In this document: piece by piece, positions 158-20,471 of the stretch
Position numbering within the stretch: position 1 is the stretch's first letter
Layout of the letters: each line of letters opens with the position of its first letter
DNA from: a virus
DNA: 23,975 nucleotides
Virus record (IMG/VR): IMGVR_UViG_3300025769_007954
Location: 1 to 23,975 of that record
Direction: 5' to 3' (one strand)
The notes under the pieces: model-generated
The model's input: only the letters and a program-made list of their open reading frames with translations
Databases searched by the model: none
Told to the model about the DNA's origin: nothing
Translations under genes and position numbers: made by a program

Positions 158-221
158 AGCAGGGCTGGTAATGTTTTTCATACCTCCCTCATTAGTATGT
201 TTGCTAGTCCTGCTCTTTTTT
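158..221 (+). terminator. Rho-independent terminator of the integrase gene
   Basis: Bases 158-171 pair with 201-214 to form a 14-bp stem beginning AGCAGG/CCTGCT, with three G-U wobbles in the plus-strand RNA. A 5-bp inner hairpin (CATAC 179-183 with GTATG 195-199) fills the loop. A run of six T follows at 216-221. On the minus strand the wobbles become A-C mismatches and no T-run follows the stem, so the element should act on plus-strand transcripts. It starts 14 nt after the integrase stop and overlaps the last codons of the convergent giant gene. Confidence 0.7.
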
Positions 222-3200
222 CTTCTTTTTCTTTTCTATTTTCTCAAAACCTCTGACAAAGATATTATTGTATTTAAGATGTATGTCATGCCTCTGCATG
301 TCTATCTCGTCTGACAGTCTTACGTATTTAACATAATCTTTTTCTCTAAGGTTGAGAATAGTTTTTTCCCTCGACCCCAGCTTTCTTAATTCTGAGTCCG
401 CTTTTTTTGCAGCATCATTAAGAGATAGATATTCCTTATCAAAACCAGTTCTTTCAATATAGTCTTGCAACGCTGCTTTATCATTATCTTTTTTGTAATT
501 AAGATACTCTCCAGCCTTTTGCACTATCATCTCTTTGTTGTCATAGAAATTAGATGCATCAACATAATCCATTGGCTCTGCTGTTAACACTCTTATAAAT
601 GGTGTTTCGTTTAATTCTATTTTTTGATCTGTTCCCAAAACTAAATTGTCATAAACCTTATTACTTATTGAAGCAGTTCTTTCAGCCATTGTGTACATAC
701 CACCAAGATATGACTGCAAGTAGAACTTCATTTTATCTGGGCTCCAATCTATTATTCCCTTATCAAACTTTCCTCCACCAGTTTTTTCGTTAATTAGCAT
801 TGTAAATTCTCTGTAGAACTCATTGGTGTTTTTTAATTTTCTAGAAGACTTTGGAATCTCTGCTGTTCCTGGAAATTGTTCTTTATAAACTGGGGCACCG
901 GTCCATTTTTCATTAACCCTAGATTCATAGATTGGCTTGGCTATTGATGGAACAATCGTTTTAACTATATCAATACCTTGATCTTGTGAATATCCTATTC
1001 CTACTGGGGAGAATGCACCAGATATTATTCCAGCCATATCTTTACTCATTTCTATAGGAGTTCGTTTTTGATAACCAAGAACAGGCTTACTTGAAACCTC
1101 TACACCCATTCTTCCAAGGTTATAAAATATGTTATAGCCATAGGGTAATGGTATTGCTACAGCAAAAGGTTTTCCATCTACAGTATATCTTCTACTATAT
1201 TTATTAAATTTTATTTCTCCATCTCTGTATTTAACTCCAGGAATTGGAACAACCATAAACCTTTCTTTTTCATGATCTGGTATTTTATCTATAAGAAGTT
1301 TTCCATCTTCATCTTCATCTGAGATAAGCATAGAATACATTTGTACTAACGCACCAAGACCGGTTAAGCCTCCTATTATATTTCTTGAAGACTTAGACAT
1401 TCCAGACCAAACCATCTTCCCATCCTGGAATCCAATAGGATTCATTCCCCTGAACATATTTACAGATCCCTGAACGGATGCATTTGCAAATATATAAAAG
1501 GAGTTAACCAATGGTCCAAGTTTCCCTGATCTGTTAAAGTTTATTGTAAGGTTTTTGGCAAGAACTGCTGCATCATCAAAGTCCTGTTTAGATGCCTTAT
1601 TAGCACCTCCGGCTGCATTTATATATTCTTTAAATACTGCAAATCTTGCAGTGTTTTCTACAGCATTGTTAATGTTTTCGACAAACTGAAATGTGGAGTT
1701 ATATAGCTTTTTGGCACTAATTCTTTTTTTCCCGGAGTGAGCAAGCGACATCTCTTCCATTGCTTTTTCTATTTGATCTATATCTTTAGCGTTTACATAC
1801 CCAGTTTGACCACCAAATTTTCTAAAAGAATCAAATAACTTATATGTTTCTGGATCTTTATTTTTAAGAGTTCCGGTGACATAGCCATCTTTAAGCTGTC
1901 TCATTGTTTTGGCAATATTATTTGGTTTAAATGCCTTTGTTAAACTTAAACCCTGGGCTCTTCCATCTTTTATTTCTTGTTCTTTAATTAAATTAAAATA
2001 ACCTGTTTGGTAATCTCTAAAGAAGTTTCCAACAACAAACTCAGGAGCAAGTGATGTATATAAACTTGAAAGTGTTCCTGTTAAACCCCTCATTACACCA
2101 AGGCTCCAGTGCAAGCTGTTATTACCCCAAGAGTCTAATCCTTTAGCAAGCCTTTCATCTCTGATAACAATAAACTTTTGTTTGCCGCCTTCTTTAAATC
2201 CTATCTTTGATTCTCTTCCGTCCCATGCGTGAGGTCTTTCATTTCTTTTTACACCTCTTACTTGCCATATTTTTTTATCTGGGAATTTATTAACCAATTC
2301 AGAAAGAGACTTATCAACAAAATTTTTCTCCCCGCGAACCACGGCGGACTGTCTTCTTATAACTGCTTGCTCAAGAGGGGGTCCAGACTCTGATGTCCTT
2401 CCCTTGGCTTCCAGAACCTCTCTTCCAAAAACACTTATGCCCCCTCCGCCTGTTTTTGGGGAGCTGCCCTCAATAGTTTCAACCGAGAAACCTACTAAGG
2501 GTACATAATATTTATATGAGCTGTCCCAGTCTTCTAGGGTTTGTTCGTCTACAAGATCCTGATCTCTATATATATTTAATGTATCTTGTTGATACGCTTC
2601 TAACAATTTGAAAGCAGCTAAAAGATCTTTTCCTCTTTGATTGTTTGCTGTTGCCTTCCCTGTTTTTTCATTAAACTTAATTCCAAATTTATCTAAGGTT
2701 TCAATTGCCTTGTCTGTCTTTATTCCGGAACCGCTGTCTTGATATTTTGCTAAAACATTTTTTCTTTTTGTGATCTTTCCTTTTAAAACAGTTCTTTTTT
2801 TCTTGTCTGTTTCAGCTAAAAGTTCTGCCTCTAGTCCCGGAAGCTCAGCATTATATTTTTCATTGATCTTTGCATTTCTTTCTGGTGCATGAATATTTTT
2901 AAGGAATATATTAAAGTCTTCTCTGGATATATTTTTGTCATTTAAAAATTCACTAATTTTTGTTGTAGCCTCTACAGCATTATCCATACCATATTTAACT
3001 TTTCCATGATATACATCTGTCTTTCTTATTACAGAAAGTCTTTTCATTTCTTCTGGATCTATAAACTCTGAAAACTTTTTCTCAAACTCTTTAAGCCTAT
3101 CAAGCTTATCTACAGCTTGTTCTTGAAATGTTGAGAATGCTTGAAACATAACAGACGCATCATTTGCTGTAAGTGTTTCGTATATGTTAAAGTCTGGAGA

Positions 3201-6200
3201 CTCTTCTGGTAAAACCTTTTTAGCTAAGGTTGGTGGCGTTAGGTCTGCTGGTCCTTTGTATTCTGAGTTGATTGATTCATCTCTTGTCCATCCGTATTTT
3301 TCTGAGAAGGTTTGATCGACTTCATCAATTCTCTGTTTGAGTTCCCTGACGATATTCTCAACCCTTCCTTGAAGATCGGGTGAGATTCGTCCAATATTTT
3401 GAATGTACCCTTCGCCATTTTTGTCTTTACTCCAGTCGTTAGAAAGATATCCTTCGCTGGAAGCAAACTGTCCAGCAACATATTCTTCGTTATTTTCAAA
3501 TTGTACACTATCTAAAACATTGTTTACAATCTTTTTAAATTTTAAGTTTGGTATGTCAAGGTATGAGAAGTTGATTAACCTCGCCCCATTTGAAGTTCCT
3601 ATAGGGTTGTAGTCTTTAACTCCTGACTCTTTTTCCATTGCCTCTGCAATCATCTGTGTTTCGTTTTCAGTTAATGGTCTTCCTATATTAATATCCATGC
3701 CATTTAACTTACCCTTGGCTATTCCCTTTTGGTAAAAGGGTTTGTGGTAACCAACACCGTCCTGCTTCAAGAGTATTCCAATAGCTGCTGAGTATGCTTT
3801 TGCTAAGTTTTCTGCTGCTGGCTCTAGTTTTGCAAATTCAGTTTTTGGGTCTGCCTTGTATATTTTTGTAAGGGCTATCTCTGTTTGTGATCCTGGGCTG
3901 ACCTTTCCCTCAAAAAATCCTGGTGCTTCAACTATTCCAGGAGATAGTATTCCTAAAGTATTGGCAATAAAATCTGATCCATTTTCATCTTGTAGGGCTT
4001 TTGATATTGCAACATGATATTCTTGAAGCTGTTCATATGGAGCATTAAACATCTCTTGCATATGTGCAGATGTTGCTCCTGGGATAGACTCCCAGCTTAT
4101 TTGACCAAGTGACTTTTCTAGAGCGTTGGCATAATTAAAACCAGCTGCATTTACATCAGTTCCTTCTTGTCTTGCCTTTTGAGATGTCCATATTGCTGCT
4201 TGAACCTGCTGTGGCTCCCATCCAAGTTGATTACTTATTTTTTGTATTTCATTCTCTACAAAAGAATATTGAGCGTCTGTTGGTGCGTCCGTATCAAAAC
4301 CGAAAGCTCTAACCATCCAGACATCAACCGTAACACCTTGAGTTCTGGTTGGATCTATAACTCTCATGATGTTGTTATAGAATTCGTTAGTTTTTCTTCC
4401 GCCCCAATCCTTGCCCTGAAAAACATTAATTATTTTTTCGCTCATCTTTTCAGGGAATCTTCCTGTCTTTACTGTTTCTCCGGCGGCATATTGATAGTAT
4501 GCTTGTAATGCATAATTAAAGTTAGCCTCTACCGGTGTTCCTGGTGAGGTTATAGCAATAACCTGTGCAAGCTTATCTGCATCCTCTTTGTTATTGTTTG
4601 TTATATCTAAAAGTGCTTGACCACTTTGTTCATACCAGAATCTTTGAGACACTCCTTCCTTGGCGAGCCCTCTCATTTTTCTTCTGAGAGCACCAACTTT
4701 TTGTTTGGAGTCCATTCCCTCTGGAGCTCCCACAACCTGACCGGTTGTTCCTACCTGTCTTAAATCTGGTACTTCAGGTCGAACACGGTCCCCGTCTGTA
4801 GGCTGGACCTCTCCATCCACTCTACGACTGGTTTCTGGGATGCCATCGCCTGGTTGATCTTGTCCAAGATCTCTGTCTCTGGCTCGAACCTCAACACCTC
4901 GCTTGGCACGGGGTGATTGAAAAGCGAGTTGTACTCTCTCAGCTTTCTTTGTAGTTCCGTTAATTGATATTGCATCGTTTAAATCCTCTATTAATTTTAA
5001 TACTGTCGGAGCCTTCTCTTCAAGCAATGATCTATTAGTATAATATAATTCGTGTAATTGACCAAAGACCTCTGCCTTAATCATTCTTTGTATCGGCGGG
5101 GTCATATTATTATTTAAAGAAATCATTTCATTAAACGGATACCTTAATAGATTTCCATCATAATATTTACCCTTTTCACCCTCGTTAAAAATTTTGATTG
5201 CCTCTTGCATAACCTGACCGCCAGTACCATCTTCAATATCAAGGGTGTTATTTGCCTCATTATATTTAAATGTTGGTAAATCAAATAATGGTGAATCAGA
5301 CGTTACTGGTTGTAATATATTTGCATCAATACTTGGGTTTCTTCCTATAGTAAAATCAATATGGTGTCCCATTTCGTGTGCCATTGTTGATCTTAAATTT
5401 AATTTAGAACCTAGGTTATTTTGAAAGTTTAAGTTAGCTATACCAGATATAGGAGAAAAAGATATTCCCTTCAGGGTTGGCATATAAACACCATAAGATG
5501 TTTCATAGGTTTTATATCTATTATCTCTTACATGTGCTCCTATAAAGTCTAGATCAGAAAATATATCAATTGGCATTCCTGCTTTGCTTAAATCAATAAT
5601 ACTTTTAGATGCGTTTGTTGCCTCCTCTGTATTAAGATCTCTAAATCTATAATATTTTTCTTCTCCGTTTGGCTCTAGTAAAAACTTTTCTTCAAATGTT
5701 CTGCTGTCAACTATTAGGCTTTTTGTTAAATCTATCTCTTTTGCGTCATAGGAGTCATTTTTAATTAAATCTATATTTAGGGTTGGGCTTGAGGGTAAAT
5801 CTAATTCAAGAATGTTTGTAGCATTATTAACTCTTTCAGTTATTATAGGAGAAAGATCTAAATCTATTTCAGATGTTTTTGATCCTGCAACTTTTTTCTC
5901 TACTCCAGAATTTAATGGATCTACAAAATTAAAACCAGGCTCCCTAACTGGGGGAAATTTTAATTCCAAGGTTTCCGCATAATCATCTGGCTGTGAAACA
6001 CGACCTTCTTCTCCAACCACTAGGGGTTTTCTGTAATCAATGAACGGCTGATTAAAATACTCTAACGCAATAATCTCATCCGCTGTCCAGCCTTTTCCAT
6101 CAGTGTTAGGGTCTAATAATTTTCTAGAGAAACTATCTATTGCATTGTAATTAAGTTGTAGATTATTTACATTATTATTAAAATCTTCAATAAATAACTC

Positions 6201-7442
6201 TAGTTCTGGATTGTCTTTCTGGTTTCTTATAAATGTCTTAACATCTTCACTGTAAACAACTCCACCTGTAGTTCTAAATGCTGATATGGATCCAGAGGCT
6301 ACTATAGACGCTAGAGTTGTGTGTCCAGCAATATCTACTAAAACTTCACTTACAGATCTTCCCTCATACAAAGGATTGTTTGTATTATCAAAAGCGGTCT
6401 TGAGCTCTGAATCTAGATCAAACCAAACCGAGTTAAGTTCTTGTAAAACAGAATTAACATTTTCCATACCAACATCAATTCCAACAGTTGCAAGATCTCT
6501 TTTAAAAATATCTTTTATAGTGCCTCTTGATCCTGGAGATAAAAATCTCATTACAGGAACAGCCTCTGTACCAACTTCAAGCAAACTGTTTATACTAGCG
6601 TAGCCAAGGGCTGATTCATGAGGAAGACCTTGCTGTCTTGCTTCTGAATATGATGCCGCACCAGTCATCAATCCAAAATATGTAAGAGTTCCTCCAGTAA
6701 CTGCTGGAAAAGCAGCACCTCCACTGGCATAATTTACTGCCATTCCGGTGCCTATTATTGCTAAGCTCTCTACTCCGCTAGAGATAGAGCTTCCGTATGG
6801 ACCTATGTTGTTATCAGCTCTTTTTTTAGCTATGGCTTTGTCAATTTTTTTAAATTCTTTCAAGCCTTCTTCTTGTGCCTTAGCAAGGGTATCATCAACT
6901 TCTTTTCTATATGACTCATCGTTGTTGTAATCTTCTTTTGCTTTTAACTGCAATTTCATATTATAAAGATCTGAAAAACCAGAAGTTCCATATGGACTAG
7001 AAATACCAACAGGTCTTATACCTTTTAAGATGTCGTCCATTTCTTCTGCTGAACCAAGTTTGAAAGCAGAAAATATTTTTTGTGCGTTTTCTTTAAATGC
7101 TGTAGCTTTAATTATATCTAAGCCATAGCTTATGTTTTCTATTGGTGAATCCGGATATCTTTCTTCTGCCTCGGCTGCCGCCCCAACGAAGGGTTTTATA
7201 AAAACATCACCAAAAAAATTTCCAACTTTCCCAATTGGTGTGTCTGCAAAGTCTTCTGGTTTGGGTCCTGTGTTTGCATATGGATCTATACGCTTACCTT
7301 TTAATGGATCATTAAAATCAAACTGACCGTAGTTTTCTTCGACACCTTCTCCCAAAGAAGGTTCTGGAAATTCCTCCTCTTCTTTTTCTAACTCCTCTGC
7401 TGAAAGTCTTAAGGGATCTGTAAAGTCAAAAGGATTTGCCAC
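204..7442 (-). CDS. Giant polyvalent virion protein with metallopeptidase motif and LPD38-like region
   Basis: A 2412-residue protein, probably a packaged effector or ejection protein of the polyvalent type. It starts at GTG, with AAGG about 10 nt upstream inside the end of the preceding gene. Visible parts, in order: an acidic N-terminus; a Gly/Ala-rich hydrophobic stretch around residues 215-275 that could insert in membrane; a zincin motif HEMGHH (H689, E690, H693) in a locally helical context; an Arg/Asp/Pro/Gly-rich linker around 840-910; a globular region around 911-1105; long helical and charged regions; a region around 1795-2080 with APEFVVGNFFRD and FYIFANASVQG that resembles the LPD38 domain of phage polyvalent proteins; and a Lys-rich C-terminus. 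It lies last in the virion block behind smaller internal-protein candidates. By family knowledge such proteins enter the host with DNA. The peptidase substrate is unknown. The overall class is fairly secure; domain borders are estimates. Confidence 0.75.
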   Translation of the reverse strand: MANPFDFTDPLRLSAEELEKEEEEFPEPSLGEGVEENYGQFDFNDPLKGKRIDPYANTGPKPEDFADTPIGKVGNFFGDVFIKPFVGAAAEAEERYPDSPIENISYGLDIIKATAFKENAQKIFSAFKLGSAEEMDDILKGIRPVGISSPYGTSGFSDLYNMKLQLKAKEDYNNDESYRKEVDDTLAKAQEEGLKEFKKIDKAIAKKRADNNIGPYGSSISSGVESLAIIGTGMAVNYASGGAAFPAVTGGTLTYFGLMTGAASYSEARQQGLPHESALGYASINSLLEVGTEAVPVMRFLSPGSRGTIKDIFKRDLATVGIDVGMENVNSVLQELNSVWFDLDSELKTAFDNTNNPLYEGRSVSEVLVDIAGHTTLASIVASGSISAFRTTGGVVYSEDVKTFIRNQKDNPELELFIEDFNNNVNNLQLNYNAIDSFSRKLLDPNTDGKGWTADEIIALEYFNQPFIDYRKPLVVGEEGRVSQPDDYAETLELKFPPVREPGFNFVDPLNSGVEKKVAGSKTSEIDLDLSPIITERVNNATNILELDLPSSPTLNIDLIKNDSYDAKEIDLTKSLIVDSRTFEEKFLLEPNGEEKYYRFRDLNTEEATNASKSIIDLSKAGMPIDIFSDLDFIGAHVRDNRYKTYETSYGVYMPTLKGISFSPISGIANLNFQNNLGSKLNLRSTMAHEMGHHIDFTIGRNPSIDANILQPVTSDSPLFDLPTFKYNEANNTLDIEDGTGGQVMQEAIKIFNEGEKGKYYDGNLLRYPFNEMISLNNNMTPPIQRMIKAEVFGQLHELYYTNRSLLEEKAPTVLKLIEDLNDAISINGTTKKAERVQLAFQSPRAKRGVEVRARDRDLGQDQPGDGIPETSRRVDGEVQPTDGDRVRPEVPDLRQVGTTGQVVGAPEGMDSKQKVGALRRKMRGLAKEGVSQRFWYEQSGQALLDITNNNKEDADKLAQVIAITSPGTPVEANFNYALQAYYQYAAGETVKTGRFPEKMSEKIINVFQGKDWGGRKTNEFYNNIMRVIDPTRTQGVTVDVWMVRAFGFDTDAPTDAQYSFVENEIQKISNQLGWEPQQVQAAIWTSQKARQEGTDVNAAGFNYANALEKSLGQISWESIPGATSAHMQEMFNAPYEQLQEYHVAISKALQDENGSDFIANTLGILSPGIVEAPGFFEGKVSPGSQTEIALTKIYKADPKTEFAKLEPAAENLAKAYSAAIGILLKQDGVGYHKPFYQKGIAKGKLNGMDINIGRPLTENETQMIAEAMEKESGVKDYNPIGTSNGARLINFSYLDIPNLKFKKIVNNVLDSVQFENNEEYVAGQFASSEGYLSNDWSKDKNGEGYIQNIGRISPDLQGRVENIVRELKQRIDEVDQTFSEKYGWTRDESINSEYKGPADLTPPTLAKKVLPEESPDFNIYETLTANDASVMFQAFSTFQEQAVDKLDRLKEFEKKFSEFIDPEEMKRLSVIRKTDVYHGKVKYGMDNAVEATTKISEFLNDKNISREDFNIFLKNIHAPERNAKINEKYNAELPGLEAELLAETDKKKRTVLKGKITKRKNVLAKYQDSGSGIKTDKAIETLDKFGIKFNEKTGKATANNQRGKDLLAAFKLLEAYQQDTLNIYRDQDLVDEQTLEDWDSSYKYYVPLVGFSVETIEGSSPKTGGGGISVFGREVLEAKGRTSESGPPLEQAVIRRQSAVVRGEKNFVDKSLSELVNKFPDKKIWQVRGVKRNERPHAWDGRESKIGFKEGGKQKFIVIRDERLAKGLDSWGNNSLHWSLGVMRGLTGTLSSLYTSLAPEFVVGNFFRDYQTGYFNLIKEQEIKDGRAQGLSLTKAFKPNNIAKTMRQLKDGYVTGTLKNKDPETYKLFDSFRKFGGQTGYVNAKDIDQIEKAMEEMSLAHSGKKRISAKKLYNSTFQFVENINNAVENTARFAVFKEYINAAGGANKASKQDFDDAAVLAKNLTINFNRSGKLGPLVNSFYIFANASVQGSVNMFRGMNPIGFQDGKMVWSGMSKSSRNIIGGLTGLGALVQMYSMLISDEDEDGKLLIDKIPDHEKERFMVVPIPGVKYRDGEIKFNKYSRRYTVDGKPFAVAIPLPYGYNIFYNLGRMGVEVSSKPVLGYQKRTPIEMSKDMAGIISGAFSPVGIGYSQDQGIDIVKTIVPSIAKPIYESRVNEKWTGAPVYKEQFPGTAEIPKSSRKLKNTNEFYREFTMLINEKTGGGKFDKGIIDWSPDKMKFYLQSYLGGMYTMAERTASISNKVYDNLVLGTDQKIELNETPFIRVLTAEPMDYVDASNFYDNKEMIVQKAGEYLNYKKDNDKAALQDYIERTGFDKEYLSLNDAAKKADSELRKLGSREKTILNLREKDYVKYVRLSDEIDMQRHDIHLKYNNIFVRGFEKIEKKKKKKEQD

Positions 7443-14740: not shown

Positions 14741-14893
14741 TTATTTTTTCTTTCTTTTCTTTATAGTTTTATAAGCTTCATTTTTAACAGTCTTTGGATC
14801 GTCTGCGACATAACGCCCTTTCTTATCCCTAGCTCTAACTACCTCAGACTCAACCAAGCCTAGTTTAGCTAACATATTACCAAACCAGCTCAC
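14741..14893 (-). CDS. Small basic phage protein (50 residues)
   Basis: A short gene with GTG start whose first bases overlap the holin stop (GTGA, 4-nt overlap), a classic coupled junction. It ends at TAA 14741-14743, 3 nt before the nuclease ATG. The product begins MSWFGNMLAKLGL, has a central RDKKGRYVADDP segment and a Lys-rich end (KKRKKK). The D-K-x-GRY-x-A-DDP segment is a style I associate with small phage proteins near lysis and structural genes. No function is known to me. The exact fit between two genes and the balanced codon pattern support it being real. Confidence 0.6.
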   Translation of the reverse strand: MSWFGNMLAKLGLVESEVVRARDKKGRYVADDPKTVKNEAYKTIKKRKKK

Positions 14894-15375
14894 CTGCCAT
14901 CCTCTTTAGATTGTGAAGCTCCAAAATAAAAAGATATCACAGCACTAGCCAAACCACCTAAATATCCTAAAACTAAATTAATTAAAGCTTCGCTGTTTTG
15001 CTCTGGGGGCTGGAGTGTTACCAAGAATATATATGTCATAAACCCAGTTAGAGTCATGATTCCCATTATTCTTGTTGTCCAATCTTTGCTAAAGCTTTTT
15101 CTAGCATCTCGTTTGTCATCAGTTTCTAATTTAAATATATCAACATCTAATTGTTTCATCTGTTGCTCAAACTCCTGCTCTGCTTTTTTGAGCTGTAGCA
15201 TTTGTTCTGGTGTTGCTTCAGCTATTGCCCTTTCTATAGACTTTGTATTGTTTGGTACGCCTAATGTTTCGGCTATAAGGTTTGCTGCCATACCGCCCAT
15301 TGGACCTCCTAGAGCCGTACCAAGAGTTGGGGCTACTGCTCCAACTACATTTTTTAATAAATTCTTTAATGCCAT
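14890..15375 (-). CDS. Holin, 3-TM (gene-transfer-agent) type
   Basis: A 161-residue protein with ATG preceded by AAGGA at 5 nt. Residues 11-40 form a Gly/Ala-rich amphipathic or membrane segment. Residues 45-98 are charged and coiled (QLKKAEQEFEQQ, LDVDIFKLETDD), then KDWTTRIMG leads into membrane spans at about 101-121 and 130-152, ending FYFGASQSKEDGR. The order hydrophobic-coil-DWT-R-TM-TM-YFG is that of the holin family described with gene-transfer-agent release. It would permeabilise the inner membrane at the end of infection. No endolysin is seen beside it. It is separated by 8 nt from the cyclase gene and overlaps the next small gene. Confidence 0.75.
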   Translation of the reverse strand: MALKNLLKNVVGAVAPTLGTALGGPMGGMAANLIAETLGVPNNTKSIERAIAEATPEQMLQLKKAEQEFEQQMKQLDVDIFKLETDDKRDARKSFSKDWTTRIMGIMTLTGFMTYIFLVTLQPPEQNSEALINLVLGYLGGLASAVISFYFGASQSKEDGR

Positions 15376-15383
15376 AATTGTCC

Positions 15384-17129
15384 TTATATTGTATAAATAA
15401 CTAAAGGTTTTTCTTTTCCTTTAACTTTTATTGGTTTAAGTAATTTTAACCCAATTTGCGACTTATTTGCAGTTGATTCACCAATCAATATATCTACTCC
15501 TGCTTCCTTGGTAGCTGATTCAAGTCTTGCTGCAACATTAACAGAATCTCCAATAGCAGAATAATCAAACCTAGTATCGCTACCCATATTACCTATTACC
15601 GCATTGCCACTATTAATTCCACACCCAATCGCTATGGGTTCTGGTAGATCTTTTTGTAATTGTTGAATAGCTGTACGCATATCTCTTGCACAGGCTATAG
15701 CTCTGTCCTCATGACAGTCTAAATCCAATGGTGCATTAAATATTGCCATACAGGCATCACCGATAAATTTATCTACCATGCCTCCATGTGCCTGAATACA
15801 TTTAACCTGAACAGTTAAAACTTTATTCATAATATCTGTAACTTCTTCTGGTGTAAGTTTTTCTGATAAATTTGTAAAGCCTCTTACATCTGTGAATAAA
15901 AATGTGCAGTTTCTTTTTTCTCCCCCGAGTTGCAAGAGGTCAGGATTGTTTTGTAATTGCTTAACCTGCCTTGGATCAAGATAGTGTTCAAATTGTTTTT
16001 TGATCTGTTGACGTAATTTATATTGTTTTTTAAAGTTAATATAGTATGCAACTGTAGAAGTTATGACTTGAGAGATAAAAGTCCATGAAAAATCTAACAA
16101 AATGCCTTTCTGAACGCTAAAAACTCCTGAGAAGCCCGTGGCGAAGAGTAAAATTATTACGATACTTAGACCCTTACCTATACCAAGATAATTGATTGTG
16201 AGCCACGTCAGCGACACAAAAATTCCTAAAATTAAAATTTCGGCTGCTAAATGCCAGTCTGGAATATATGGAGAGTTTTCTATTAAGATTGACTCAGATA
16301 ATGCTGCTTGAATTTTGTGTGGCTCTAGTAATCCAACTGGAGTTGCAATCTGTGGCATGATTCCATTAGCGGTTATCCCAACAAAAACAAATTTACCCTG
16401 CACATTCATTTCTTGTAAATTGGTTTGTGGTGTATCTACCCAGCTGATCCATTTACGACCTAAACTGTCTGTCTTAACTGGTGGTAATCCTTTGACCCGT
16501 ATCTCCTCTATACCAAGATCATTTGTTTTTATAATATAAGTATCAGCACCAACCAATGCTTTCAATACCTCTGTGCCAAATGCGGGGACATACCCATCTG
16601 GTGTTTTTAATAATAAAGGGATTCTACGAACCAGGTTGTCAATATCGGTAGGTGCAGTTGCAATACCCTGTTGTACATAATTTCTAAGGTTGATAGTATT
16701 TTGAACTACACCTTCAGATAACATACCACCTTTTTCTTCTCCCAGGATCACAGTACCAACTGTTTTTGGGTATATTTGATTTGGGGCTTCAAACATTGCC
16801 AATATTGATGTACCTTGTTGTAAAGACTCTGCAAATTTTTTATCTCCCCCGAGTCGATCAGGGTGAGGAAAAGATATAACCCAACCAACACCAAGAGCAC
16901 CATTACTTAATATTTCATTATTTATTTCTGCAAGTCTCTGTCTGGGTAAAGGATAACCCCCCTCCTGATCTATAAAATTTTCATCTATGTTTAGTATTGT
17001 GAAGTACCCAGAAGGCTGTTGCTTTGGTACTAAATAATCAAATACTTTTAACTTTAATATTTCTGTGGGCGGACTTTGAAATACCAGGGGTGTTGCTAAT
17101 ATAGCTAATAATAAAACAAATATTCTCAT
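15384..17129 (-). CDS. CHASE2-domain class III adenylate/guanylate cyclase
   Basis: A 581-residue inner-membrane sensor cyclase. Residues 1-18 are a hydrophobic N-terminal anchor. About 25-285 is an extracytoplasmic CHASE2 domain (VFDYLVP, FTILNIDENFI, GALGVGWVISFPHPD, then FVFVGITANG). Three membrane spans lie around 291-313, 317-336 and 343-366. The cytoplasmic cyclase domain covers 400-581. Catalytic residues are all visible: metal-binding D414 (FTDVRGFT) and D458 (DKFIGDA), base-selecting K454, and transition-state N531 and R535 (DSVNVAARLE). The second base-selecting position is S524 where many enzymes have Asp or Thr, a class IIIb-like feature. An active, probably cAMP-forming enzyme is predicted. 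ATG overlaps the fecR stop (TAATG). CHASE2 ligands are unknown. Cyclic nucleotide made here would act on host regulators, as no phage receptor is visible. Confidence 0.9.
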   Translation of the reverse strand: MRIFVLLLAILATPLVFQSPPTEILKLKVFDYLVPKQQPSGYFTILNIDENFIDQEGGYPLPRQRLAEINNEILSNGALGVGWVISFPHPDRLGGDKKFAESLQQGTSILAMFEAPNQIYPKTVGTVILGEEKGGMLSEGVVQNTINLRNYVQQGIATAPTDIDNLVRRIPLLLKTPDGYVPAFGTEVLKALVGADTYIIKTNDLGIEEIRVKGLPPVKTDSLGRKWISWVDTPQTNLQEMNVQGKFVFVGITANGIMPQIATPVGLLEPHKIQAALSESILIENSPYIPDWHLAAEILILGIFVSLTWLTINYLGIGKGLSIVIILLFATGFSGVFSVQKGILLDFSWTFISQVITSTVAYYINFKKQYKLRQQIKKQFEHYLDPRQVKQLQNNPDLLQLGGEKRNCTFLFTDVRGFTNLSEKLTPEEVTDIMNKVLTVQVKCIQAHGGMVDKFIGDACMAIFNAPLDLDCHEDRAIACARDMRTAIQQLQKDLPEPIAIGCGINSGNAVIGNMGSDTRFDYSAIGDSVNVAARLESATKEAGVDILIGESTANKSQIGLKLLKPIKVKGKEKPLVIYTI

Positions 17130-18292
17130 TAGTTGCTTTGGGTAATCTTTATAGTACTACCCTCTCCTCCATTGATTGATACCACTCTAGATACTCCATC
17201 CTGAATAAAAATAACTGTATAACCTGTATCAGAATCAACATCCACTCTTGCAGTATTGTTTACGCTTCTTATTATAGTTAGCTTTTCTCCTGTCATATAA
17301 GTTGTGATTTGAGTCTCTAGATCTTGACCAAGCCTGGTTCCAACAATGTTTAATGTGGTTGCATCTTGTGCTAGCTGATCTTCCTCTTGAATCACTTCAA
17401 GTTCGTCTAATATATCCAACAGATCCTCAAGAAAGTTTACGTCCAACCAATTGTAATCTAGCTCACTAAATTCAAGACTATCACCGTCTAAGTAATCTTT
17501 GTCTAGCTCTTCAAACTCTAGATAATCTACATCCAATATGTTGTTTGATCCCTTTGCTGTTGTCTCTTCTATTAGCTGTATATTTTGTTTTGGTGGGTTA
17601 ACAATAAGCATGTTATCTATAACATCTAAGGTTAAGTCTAAAATGACTGGCTTGGTTGGTGGTTTCTCAAATACATCTACGGTTGTAGCCTGATATGGTT
17701 TGTTAAGTGTAACTGTACCCATAGCTGTAGTTACTAATATTTCACCGCTAGATAAACCATTGATATCAGGTAATAGTATTAATAAACTACGTCCAGTTTC
17801 ATCTACAGTTACGGTAAAGTCAGTACCTCTTATAGCTATATTAGCTGTAGGTGTCTTAAGATCTATATTGTTTTTATCTATCTTATTAAGACTTCCTGTA
17901 ATAAACCTAGCTGTACCAAGACCAAAGGTAATAGCCATTTTAGATTTGCTAGGGTTTGGATCAAAGACGTATTCGTCAATGGTAAGCTGTGAGTGTTCAG
18001 TTAGTTTAACTTTAGAATCATCTAAGAACGTAATAGCCATACGACCATTAGTAGTTATAGCTTCATCATTTTGTTGGATATTAAAGGCTAGTTTAGCACT
18101 GTACGACTGATCTCTTACTACTTGTGCAGATCCGTTTAGCTCAGATATATTTCCGACATCAACAGCTGGTTGTTGTTCCGCTATCGTTTTGAATGATACA
18201 GATATTAGAATTAGAAGCAGAGCTAGTAATTGATATCCAGTCTCTAGCCAGTGTTGACTGTTGTTTAATATTGAATGTGTTTGAGCTGCCAT
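17129..18292 (-). CDS. Exported FecR-domain protein with acidic repeat tail
   Basis: A 387-residue protein. The hydrophobic run LLALLLILISVSF at 22-34 followed by KTIAEQQ is a signal peptide or anchor. ATG at 18292 is the only usable start upstream of it, which forces a 134-nt overlap with the curlin-like gene. A beta-rich FecR domain spans about 45-200 (N-G-S-A-Q-V, DEAITTNGRMAITFLDDS, LTIDEYVFDP, then TPTANIAIRGTDFTV). A Pro-rich linker follows, then an acidic repeat part around 250-305 with LEFEELD (258-264) and LEFSELD (273-279), and a C-terminal beta region. FecR periplasmic domains relay envelope signals. Here no TonB receptor or sigma factor is near, and the coupled partner is the cyclase, whose sensor faces the same compartment. 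Binding to it is inference. Confidence 0.8.
   Translation of the reverse strand: MAAQTHSILNNSQHWLETGYQLLALLLILISVSFKTIAEQQPAVDVGNISELNGSAQVVRDQSYSAKLAFNIQQNDEAITTNGRMAITFLDDSKVKLTEHSQLTIDEYVFDPNPSKSKMAITFGLGTARFITGSLNKIDKNNIDLKTPTANIAIRGTDFTVTVDETGRSLLILLPDINGLSSGEILVTTAMGTVTLNKPYQATTVDVFEKPPTKPVILDLTLDVIDNMLIVNPPKQNIQLIEETTAKGSNNILDVDYLEFEELDKDYLDGDSLEFSELDYNWLDVNFLEDLLDILDELEVIQEEDQLAQDATTLNIVGTRLGQDLETQITTYMTGEKLTIIRSVNNTARVDVDSDTGYTVIFIQDGVSRVVSINGGEGSTIKITQSN
18159..18292 (-). other. 134-nt dual-coding overlap (curlin-like C-terminus and FecR signal peptide)
   Basis: Both frames carry meaningful sequence. One ends the curlin-like protein with a last repeat (SNSNICIIQND) and a terminal Cys before TGA 18161-18159. 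The other encodes the FecR start and its signal peptide. Lack of any alternative ATG, GTG or TTG in the FecR frame before the hydrophobic run means that the overlap cannot be trimmed without losing export. Confidence 0.7.
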
Positions 18293-18884
18293 CTAGATCC
18301 AAATAAAAGTAACCAGCGTCTGAAGATGTTGATCCTCCATAGCCATTACCAAGAAAGTTAATTGTGTTACTGCTTCCGTTAACATCTACATAGTTTGTAG
18401 CATTCTCGTAGTCAATGTCAAAATCAAATGCGTTGGAATCTCCAGAGATAATCCAGTCTAGGTCGAGATAAGAAACATCATCATCCTCACCTGCTTTTAA
18501 ATCAAATGTATTACTACTACCAGTAACGTCTATGTTCATGTTTACATAATCAGCAGTGATTAATCCTGTACTGTTTAATAATAAATCAAATACATTAGAG
18601 TCACCATCAAACTCAAAGAAACCTGTAAAATTATCTCCTTCTATAGCATCTGATCTAAATATATTACTACTACCTATTTGATTAATATCAAGAGTCATTG
18701 AAACTCCGTCTAGATCTAAAGCAGTCATGGTTCCAGATGTTGCTTGGGTACCACCGATTAAGTTAGATGATCCTAACTGTTCTAAATCAATAGATGCTGA
18801 ATTTCCGCTTTGATCGACATGAACTTCATTGTCCGCTAATACAGATACGCTAAATAACAAACCAATTAAAAATTTATTCTTCAT
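18159..18884 (-). CDS. Secreted curlin-like repeat protein, probable CsgG substrate
   Basis: A 241-residue protein with ATG and GGAG at 5 nt. MKNKFLIGLLFSVSVLA is a cleavable signal peptide. The mature part has eight to nine repeats centred on G-x-S-N followed by hydrophobic-x-hydrophobic: G27, G38, G71, G94, G122, G148, G170, G199 and a final SNSN at 224-227, spaced 22-33 residues. The first repeats keep curlin-like Gln (VDQSGNSASIDLEQLGSSN, INQIGSSN) and later ones replace Gln with Asp (DLDGSSN, DVNGSSN). CsgA and CsgB repeats share the x-Q-x-G-x-x-N-x-hydrophobic pattern and stack as beta-solenoid amyloid. The predicted product is very acidic and has two Cys (C229, C241). It directly follows csgG with an 11-nt overlap. 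Amyloid formation is a prediction and not certain. Confidence 0.75.
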   Translation of the reverse strand: MKNKFLIGLLFSVSVLADNEVHVDQSGNSASIDLEQLGSSNLIGGTQATSGTMTALDLDGVSMTLDINQIGSSNIFRSDAIEGDNFTGFFEFDGDSNVFDLLLNSTGLITADYVNMNIDVTGSSNTFDLKAGEDDDVSYLDLDWIISGDSNAFDFDIDYENATNYVDVNGSSNTINFLGNGYGGSTSSDAGYFYLDLDGSSNTFNIKQQSTLARDWISITSSASNSNICIIQNDSGTTTSC

Positions 18885-19692
18885 TTATACTCCAGTAACT
18901 TTTTGTTGCTCCTTGTTTAACTGTTTCCAAGACTGCGGTTTCGATTGCTGTTTGTAATGCTATGTCTATAGATTCGTTTCTAACTAAACCGTTTTCTATT
19001 TCTACTAGCTCTGTTTGATTGGCTACAAAACGAAATACATCATTGTCTAACGATGCACTTAATATTGTTTTGGTAACTAACACTTCAAGCAATACTTTAC
19101 CCGTAGTTACGGAAACAGTGCGAAGAGATATGGTGACTGTGTCTTGTTTATACTGCCTAGACATTCCTATGCCCAAGTATCTAGCACCAGCCCCTCCACT
19201 TTTAATGTTACTTTCGTAAGATATCACACCACCCTGCATAATCAAGCCAGCAAACATTAGGGGTGGTAACTTCTTTTCCTCGTCAAAATCCTGTCTTGTG
19301 CTTCTTATAATCTGTCGTTCTTTAGTAACATTATCTAAACCAACACGTTCTACTACTTCAAAGAAACCATTGTTATTACTACCAGCATGCTTTAACGCTC
19401 TAATTAAGTAAGCATCTGGAGCTTGTGTTACCGCAGATGAAAAGGTTGCGTATGTACTATTACTTCTACGTTGACCAGTTTGGTCTGTAAATGATCCAGC
19501 ATAAATTGCTACCACTGGTTTTTTGTTGCTTGCTATCTTTATATTAGCCAAGTCAGGCACCAATAAAGATCCAATCTTTGCTGGTTCTGATTCTTGTATT
19601 GGTGGTAAATTGTTTTCTATTGGGTCGAACAGTAATGCACAACTAGAAAGAAAAGTCACCAAGAGGAAGTTGTATAATAGTTTCTGAACCAT
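18874..19692 (-). CDS. csgG: CsgG-family curli secretion pore lipoprotein
   Basis: A 272-residue protein from ATG 19692; an earlier TTG at 19701 is less likely. The lipobox LSSC puts the lipidated Cys at residue 18, followed by Ala, so it should be sorted to the outer membrane. The body matches E. coli CsgG closely: VAIYAGSFTDQTGQ, FSSAV, ERQIIRSTRQ, ESNIKSGGAGARYLGIG (from about residue 160), QYKQDTVTISLRTVSVTTGK and TKTIL then VFRFV. CsgG forms a nine-subunit outer-membrane channel that exports unfolded curlin. At the pore constriction the E. coli Y51-N55-F56 set appears here as Tyr81-Thr83-Phe84, so Phe is kept, Asn is changed and the Tyr is shifted. It overlaps csgF by 50 nt and the curlin-like gene by 11 nt. 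Length is near the E. coli 277. Identity is strong. Confidence 0.93.
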   Translation of the reverse strand: MVQKLLYNFLLVTFLSSCALLFDPIENNLPPIQESEPAKIGSLLVPDLANIKIASNKKPVVAIYAGSFTDQTGQRRSNSTYATFSSAVTQAPDAYLIRALKHAGSNNNGFFEVVERVGLDNVTKERQIIRSTRQDFDEEKKLPPLMFAGLIMQGGVISYESNIKSGGAGARYLGIGMSRQYKQDTVTISLRTVSVTTGKVLLEVLVTKTILSASLDNDVFRFVANQTELVEIENGLVRNESIDIALQTAIETAVLETVKQGATKSYWSINEE

Positions 19693-20140
19693 CGCTTGCA
19701 ATTATTGTTAGTGTAATCATACCATCTTCGATAGTATAACTAATTGTGTTTCCTTCTAAATTAAATGTACCCTCTGTTGACTGCGTTTCTCCAAACATAT
19801 TTTCTACTATCTGCCTGGATATTTGTGCATATATTCTTGACTCTAAGTTACGAATAAATCTAGCCAAGGTTGTGTTTTCTTTATCTCTCTCGAGTTGCTC
19901 CTGGATGGCTTTCAGCTCTTCCTTAACAGTTAATTTTCTTTGATACTCCTGTGAATCAATGGTCAAATAATGTGCGGATGTTCCAATACCAGAGAACGAA
20001 GGTGACTTAAATTTATGCACCATTTCATCTGCTTTTACATTCTGCACAAAAATACCTACAAATAAAATTATTCCTATAAAAGATATAATCTTGATTATTA
20101 AATCTTTTTCTTTGGCTTTCTTAATCTCTTCTTTGGTCAT
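19643..20140 (-). CDS. csgF: CsgF-like curli assembly factor
   Basis: A 165-residue protein from ATG 20140 (a TTG six codons earlier is possible). A positively charged start and hydrophobic 14-32 end in VKADE, so cleavage after A37 is predicted. The mature N-terminus KFKSPSFSGIG (43-51 on) matches the CsgF peptide FRNPNFGG that enters the CsgG pore. The C-terminus has the CsgF order: helix ARFIRNLESRIYAQISRQI, then strand YTIEDGMITLTI, then DGSETIIQL and an end in SF. Around residues 70-95 lies a Lys/Glu-rich helical insertion (KEELKAIQEQLERD) that E. coli CsgF lacks. It would sit at the CsgG pore and aid curlin secretion or nucleation. It overlaps the holin-like gene by 20 nt. The family call is good. 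Confidence 0.85.
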   Translation of the reverse strand: MTKEEIKKAKEKDLIIKIISFIGIILFVGIFVQNVKADEMVHKFKSPSFSGIGTSAHYLTIDSQEYQRKLTVKEELKAIQEQLERDKENTTLARFIRNLESRIYAQISRQIVENMFGETQSTEGTFNLEGNTISYTIEDGMITLTIIASDGSETIIQLPLGDFSF

Positions 20141-20471
20141 CTCTATCCGCCTTAGCAATTTTGTTGCTATCTATTAATTGGGGGACACCAAGAATAGTCT
20201 TAATAAGAGTATCTTGTCGTATAATCTCATTGTCTAAACTTCGAACCCTATCGATTAATGCTACCAAAATACCATGCTGAGAATCAAGTTTAGTTCCAAG
20301 TCTATCTTCCATAGCAGAAATAGATGCATTGACTTTTTCATCAACAGTATCGATTTTAGTTTCCATACCATCGATAATACGCATGATGAGCTTCCAAACA
20401 AAAAAGCCAAGACCCAAAGACGCAGCTATAGGAAAGCCTAACTCTGTAATTAAACTTACCGCCTGGTCCAC
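20121..20471 (-). CDS. Holin-like small membrane protein with coiled coil
   Basis: A 116-residue protein starting at GTG. There is no clear Shine-Dalgarno, but the next in-frame ATG would remove the membrane span. One membrane span occupies about residues 8-27 (LGFPIAASLGLGFFVWKLI), followed by a charged coiled coil of about 36-110 (METKIDTVDEKVNASISAMEDRL, DRVRSLDNEI). The architecture, N-out short span and cytoplasmic coil, resembles BhlA/UviB-like and other small phage holin-like proteins. The gene follows a 35-residue membrane protein and precedes csgF with a 20-nt overlap. A holin or spanin partner role is inferred. Involvement with the curli cassette cannot be excluded. Confidence 0.5.
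   Translation of the reverse strand: MDQAVSLITELGFPIAASLGLGFFVWKLIMRIIDGMETKIDTVDEKVNASISAMEDRLGTKLDSQHGILVALIDRVRSLDNEIIRQDTLIKTILGVPQLIDSNKIAKADRDDQRRD

What the first reader, a model, noticed from the sequence alone, without database searches (positions are those of the whole stretch)
15384..20140. Curli-type secretion pore, partner and candidate substrate inside a phage gene train
Seen: CsgF-like and CsgG-like proteins with strong motif matches, then a signal-peptide protein with curlin-like repeats, all overlapping and flanked by phage genes on both sides. Known: CsgG/CsgF secrete and nucleate curlin amyloid in Gram-negative bacteria. Inferred: the phage makes its infected or lysogenised host display its own amyloid-like fibre, for aggregation, attachment, masking of receptors or to hold released virions. 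No CsgE, CsgC or CsgD is in the window, so it would be a reduced system.
Basis: partly seen in the sequence, partly recalled or inferred. Interest (0 to 1): 0.88.

Follow-up and report, generated by a model that had tools for sequence, protein, structure and literature searches.

The report
Phage-borne curli secretion cassette
A marine bacterial virus carries a six-gene set for exporting an amyloid-like surface protein, an already described kind of phage cassette, but here in an integrase-bearing virus family and, as in most relatives read here, plugged in directly ahead of the genes that burst the host cell.

Summary
CsgF, CsgG and a diverged curlin-repeat protein sit among phage genes, with a FecR-domain protein and a CHASE2-cyclase behind them and a small membrane protein (g116) in front. 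Independent contigs span cassette and flanks, so it is not a chimera. The kind is already published: Wittmers 2022 (PMC9599517) describes the same order in HTVC023P-type and T4-like pelagiphages, so this is a new member of a known kind.

Three things seem new. (1) The carrier belongs to neither published background: it is a ~54-kb phage lineage distantly related to Stx-type podoviruses, with a tyrosine integrase in every large relative. (2) In 82 of 83 loci the cassette is directly followed by a holin-type gene or a spanin-lysozyme set, in three unrelated backbones; relatives without it carry only the holin there. It sits in a late, pre-lysis slot, although T4-like carriers do not keep this. 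(3) Its first gene, probably the published 'histidine kinase', has no kinase domain and no invariant histidine.

All six genes are under purifying selection and the module moves between lineages. Most likely it is a late-expressed surface-display system; fibre formation and benefit are untested.

The parts
20121..20471 (-). g116: small protein with one N-terminal membrane segment and a coiled coil; first gene of the cassette (probably the 'HK' of PMC9599517, but not a kinase)
   Evidence: Conserved ahead of csgF in all lineages, two copies in HTVC008M and Melnitz; no kinase domain, no invariant His
19643..20158 (-). CsgF (signal peptide, then mature DEMVHKFKSPSFSG...)
   Evidence: Pfam CsgF 3.5e-19; phrog_35372 4e-40; N-terminal motif invariant in relatives
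18874..19701 (-). CsgG, outer-membrane secretion pore lipoprotein
   Evidence: Pfam CsgG 3.8e-46; invariant lipobox Cys; solved E. coli CsgG 4.4e-59 with the profile
18159..18884 (-). Curlin-like acidic repeat protein, candidate secreted substrate
   Evidence: 7 GxxN repeats against 0.3 expected; profile-profile 98.8% to other curlins; Pfam Curlin_rpt only 0.054; strand-turn repeats in the model
17129..18292 (-). FecR-domain protein, N-terminal membrane or signal segment; overlaps the curlin gene by 134 bases if the listed ATG is the start
   Evidence: Pfam FecR 1.3e-9; phrog_37870 2.3e-65; alignment
15384..17129 (-). CHASE2 sensor + class III adenylate/guanylate cyclase
   Evidence: Pfam CHASE2 2.6e-27, Guanylate_cyc 1.7e-20; catalytic motifs kept in 89-95 of 95 relatives
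14890..15375 (-). g161: holin-like gene directly downstream of the cassette (neighbour, not part of the module)
   Evidence: Weak GTA_holin_3TM match 0.052; two C-terminal membrane segments; followed by lysozyme in L201 and other loci; alone in this slot in cassette-free relatives

Best explanation
A mobile six-gene phage accessory module (g116-csgF-csgG-curlin-fecR-cyclase) builds a reduced curli (type VIII) secretion system in the infected cell. CsgG makes the outer-membrane pore, CsgF sits on it, and the acidic curlin-like repeat protein is exported and probably assembles on the cell surface. The FecR-domain protein and the CHASE2 cyclase probably form an envelope sensor that changes cAMP. 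In this integrase-bearing lineage the module lies just ahead of the lysis genes, so it is probably made late, with virion and lysis proteins. Shown here: families, gene order, selection, transfer between lineages, and position. Inferred: secretion, assembly, late timing and sensing. Most likely benefit: a coat or glue on cells about to burst, which blocks superinfection or holds sister cells near; the choice between these is open.
For: Family matches for CsgF, CsgG, FecR, CHASE2-cyclase; curlin evidence; six genes in the same order in 83 of 83 loci and directly followed by a holin-type gene or a spanin-lysozyme set in 82 of 83; lysis genes confirmed by family models; cassette-free relatives carry only the holin-type gene there in 16 of 17; dN/dS 0.02-0.145 for all six genes, cyclase motifs intact; cassettes exchanged between backbones. 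No CsgG of its own in SAR11-family genomes apart from phage-type cassettes.
Against: No CsgE or CsgC homologue; the curlin-like protein is below the Pfam cut-off and unusually acidic; no fibre or clumping was seen with the cultured carrier Melnitz (PMC9004378); the FecR model failed; late expression is read from position only; promoter and terminator scans gave nothing beyond chance.
Confidence: 0.6

Rival explanations
1. The module takes part in lysis itself: the CsgG/CsgF pore, or curlin growth in the envelope, opens or weakens the outer membrane together with the neighbouring holin (the lysis-timing idea of PMC9004378 in another form).
For: Constant place directly ahead of holin, spanin or endolysin genes in three unrelated backbones; a g116 homologue also stands beside the holin-like g161 in relatives without the cassette.
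Against: Relatives without the cassette keep the holin alone, so lysis does not need it; the HTVC023P-related lineage has the cassette and Rz/Rz1 spanins together; T4-like carriers have it away from lysis genes.
Confidence: 0.15
2. The pore serves uptake: CsgG lets nutrients, cofactors or siderophores into the infected cell, and the FecR protein and cyclase sense the supply (proposed in PMC7029224 and PMC9599517).
For: FecR domain and cyclase always travel with the pore; no CsgE gate in the cassette.
Against: Does not explain the co-conserved CsgF and the curlin-like protein, which is under strong purifying selection (dN/dS 0.03-0.09).
Confidence: 0.1
3. The cassette is a decaying passenger picked up from bacteria, without function.
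For: Function is unproved and presence is patchy among relatives.
Against: All genes open, order fixed, dN/dS far below 1, cyclase motifs intact.
Confidence: 0.03

Closest known systems
Pelagiphage T8SS (curli) module of HTVC023P-type podoviruses and pelagimyophages (Wittmers 2022, PMC9599517; Zaragoza-Solas 2020, PMC7029224)
   Same: Same order CsgF-CsgG-curlin-FecR-cyclase, preceded by a small gene called HK there, without CsgE/C/D
   Different: The window sits in another, integrase-bearing phage lineage and lacks the second curlin gene; the lysis-gene neighbour and the non-kinase nature of the first gene are not in the parts of the paper read here
Methylophilales phage Melnitz and Pelagibacter phage HTVC008M (T4-like; PMC9004378)
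   Same: Homologous g116 (two copies), CsgF, CsgG, curlin, FecR and cyclase
   Different: CsgG only 42-43% identical; a second curlin gene after FecR; not next to lysis genes
Bacterial curli (type VIII) secretion, E. coli csgBAC/csgDEFG
   Same: CsgG pore, CsgF partner and curlin repeats
   Different: No CsgE, CsgC or CsgD; FecR and CHASE2-cyclase added; substrate diverged and acidic
Stx-type podoviruses, Aeromonas phage phiARM81mr, Vibrio phage douglas 12A4
   Same: Homologous internal virion protein and terminase at about 32-34% identity
   Different: No cassette there: a CsgG search of the phage records hit only HTVC008M, Melnitz and one 1.5-kb record

Membership tests
Pelagiphage-type T8SS module (PMC9599517) | Gene order CsgF-CsgG-curlin-FecR, commonly followed by a cyclase | tested here: met
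   83 of 83 loci in the same order
Pelagiphage-type T8SS module (PMC9599517) | Preceded by one or two histidine kinase genes | tested here: inconclusive
   A small g116 gene is there, once or twice in relatives, but it has no kinase domain and no invariant His; the published HK sequences were not at hand
Pelagiphage-type T8SS module (PMC9599517) | Carried by an HTVC023P-type or T4-like pelagiphage | tested here: not met
   Structural genes match another group; host unknown
Curli (type VIII) secretion system | CsgG pore lipoprotein | tested here: met
Curli (type VIII) secretion system | CsgF partner with the conserved mature N-terminus | tested here: met
Curli (type VIII) secretion system | Substrate with curlin repeats | tested here: inconclusive
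   Below the Pfam cut-off, but repeats beyond chance and profile match to curlins
Curli (type VIII) secretion system | CsgE gate, CsgC and CsgD | tested here: not met
   No such gene among the ORFs of the window or beside the cassette in relatives; the host could supply them
Curli (type VIII) secretion system | Amyloid fibre on the cell surface | not testable with these tools
   Needs expression, dye binding and EM
Temperate phage | Integrase, repressor and integrated copies | tested here: inconclusive
   Integrase in all 16 large g560-bearing records searched; the window ends before that region; no repressor recognised in G002; no prophage found
Histidine kinase (for g116) | Kinase domain and phospho-accepting His | tested here: not met

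The most novel reading that the evidence does not exclude
The curli-like module is a working part of the phage release programme: a portable late module that keeps its place directly ahead of holin, spanin or endolysin genes in unrelated phages because its surface protein, laid down shortly before lysis, shapes what happens at lysis (outer-membrane opening, debris, retention of virions or sister cells).
Probability: 0.2. Interest if true: 0.78.

Novelty: new member of a known kind. Interest (0 to 1): 0.48.

Why it matters
Phage curli modules are abundant in the ocean and unexplained. The constant position beside lysis genes in three backbones, the natural pairs of phages with and without the module, and the probably misnamed first gene give concrete, testable handles on what it does and when it is made.

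Tried and rejected
Chimeric assembly: rejected by independent contigs across the joins. HTVC023P-type backbone for the window: rejected, its structural genes match another group, while G019 (L178-L180) is the HTVC023P-related one. Host by prophage: none found in genome contigs. Host by tRNA-type attachment site: the regions beside the integrase gave no tRNA-like end. FecR structure: model useless (pLDDT 33). Curlin fold search: only insignificant beta-helix-type matches. Bacterial source of the whole module: no FecR or cyclase found by these profiles beside CsgG in four alphaproteobacterial loci; the sample is too small to settle origin, and PMC9599517 already argues for an alphaproteobacterial source. 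Histidine kinase for g116: rejected. Promoter and terminator scans and Rfam: nothing beyond chance. CsgF against solved structures: no significant match by sequence. g161 as homologue of the 3TM holins: only weak profile similarity.

Full report
The window is a 23,975-base virus record with all long genes on the - strand. Reading in that direction: S74-type tail fibre, endonuclease VII, a DUF7936 protein, g116, CsgF, CsgG, curlin-like, FecR, CHASE2-cyclase, g161, a nuclease, an internal virion protein (g560), a second tail fibre, and further genes down to a 2,412-aa protein. The genes of the cassette overlap or nearly touch, and g161 follows the cyclase after 8 bases.

The family calls hold. 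CsgG and CsgF pass Pfam cut-offs and the CsgG profile matches the solved E. coli pores at 4e-59, with an invariant lipobox Cys. CsgF keeps its short mature N-terminal motif in relatives. The curlin-like protein is diverged: below the Pfam cut-off, but with seven GxxN repeats against 0.3 expected, alternating strands in a moderate model (pLDDT 69, pTM 0.68) and strong profile similarity to curlins of a bacterium and of T4-like phages. It is very acidic and ends with two invariant Cys.

The system is known. Wittmers 2022 (PMC9599517) reports the same gene order in nine HTVC023P-type genomes and in pelagimyophages. Zaragoza-Solas 2020 (PMC7029224) proposed sibling capture. Buchholz 2022 (PMC9004378) proposed pinholin- or secretin-like action for Melnitz and saw no clumping. 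csgGF in temperate sediment viruses was noted at gene-list level (PMC9636769), and csgG is common in seawater phages (PMC7003362, PMC11309003).

What the window adds starts with its backbone (lineage A). Its internal virion protein and the terminase of its relatives match Stx-type podoviruses, phiARM81mr and douglas 12A4 at about 32-34%, not HTVC023P. All 16 large records of this lineage that were searched encode a tyrosine integrase, and in G002 recombination and lambda-like replication genes lie near it. No repressor was recognised and no prophage was found, so 'temperate' is likely but unproved. The window itself ends before the integrase region. Two other backbones carry the same cassette: an HTVC023P-related one (B) and a ~37-kb lineage related to DSL-LC05 and Manatee Spring phages (C).

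Position is the most useful new fact. All 83 loci that show the six genes keep one order. In 82 of the 83 loci with readable sequence after the cyclase, the next family-matched gene is g161 (40), a GTA-type 3TM holin (37) or a small gene leading into Rz, Rz1 and lysozyme (5). Some loci are second stretches of one contig, so the counts are not independent. Holin, M15 endolysin, Rz, Rz1 and lysozyme were confirmed with family models. g161 itself has only weak direct holin similarity; its role is read from its place, two C-terminal membrane segments and lysozyme neighbours. In 16 of 17 lineage-A relatives without the cassette the slot holds a holin-type gene, in six of them g161 with a shorter g116 homologue. 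The T4-like carriers do not share the lysis neighbour. The pattern fits a late accessory slot; it does not prove a part in lysis.

The module moves. On a CsgG tree lineage A is not one clade (AU p 4.5e-7; seven changes of backbone). L073 (lineage A) is 89.4% identical over the cassette to L072 (lineage C) but about 75% to the lineage-A loci L131 and L066, though 88% to L104. In L010 a 96.8% lineage-A stretch ends near the end of the cyclase gene, after which a C-type holin follows. All six genes show dN/dS of 0.02-0.145 where it could be computed.

The first gene deserves a second look. g116 homologues stand ahead of csgF in every lineage, in two copies in HTVC008M, Melnitz and two further phage-type loci. 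This matches the published 'HK, sometimes two', yet the family has no kinase domain and no invariant His. I infer, without having the published HK sequences, that they are the same.

Hosts: in 147 genomes of the family of a Pelagibacter MAG, CsgG occurs twice, both times in a phage-type cassette. The host of lineage A remains open.

Mechanism, with steps marked. Shown: the proteins belong to the named families, the genes are kept in order and under selection, and the cassette is a unit of exchange. Inferred from the families: CsgG pore in the outer membrane, CsgF on it, export of the curlin-like protein, CHASE2 domain facing the periplasm and cyclase in the cytoplasm. Guessed: FecR and CHASE2 act as one sensor; the exported protein coats or glues cells shortly before lysis.

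Noticed in passing
L202 5082-6111: A phage-type contig binned in a Pelagibacter MAG carries IscU-like and IscA-like iron-sulfur proteins (named by eye) just ahead of the g116-CsgF-CsgG cassette.
   Followed up: no
L201 and L207 (same Maricaulis MAG): One MAG holds two different phage-type curli cassettes on separate contigs; L201 lacks the cyclase and goes from FecR straight to g161 and lysozyme.
   Followed up: partly
L178 14954-15631: A gene that reads like a DNA methyltransferase (by eye) is inserted between FecR and the cyclase in an HTVC023P-related contig.
   Followed up: no
window 18159-18884: The curlin-like protein ends with two Cys that are invariant in 21 relatives, possibly a capping hairpin.
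   Followed up: no
L200 6701-9495 (Melnitz): The Melnitz record annotates two curlin-associated repeat proteins, although its paper says csgA and csgB are lacking.
   Followed up: partly
phage record OR851715.1 (1,499 bases): A tiny 'Salmonella phage' record encodes a CsgG (36.8% identity); probably host DNA rather than phage.
   Followed up: no
window 204-7442: A 2,412-aa protein matches very large phage proteins of unknown function (phrog_14770, phrog_616) and varies strongly between close relatives.
   Followed up: no
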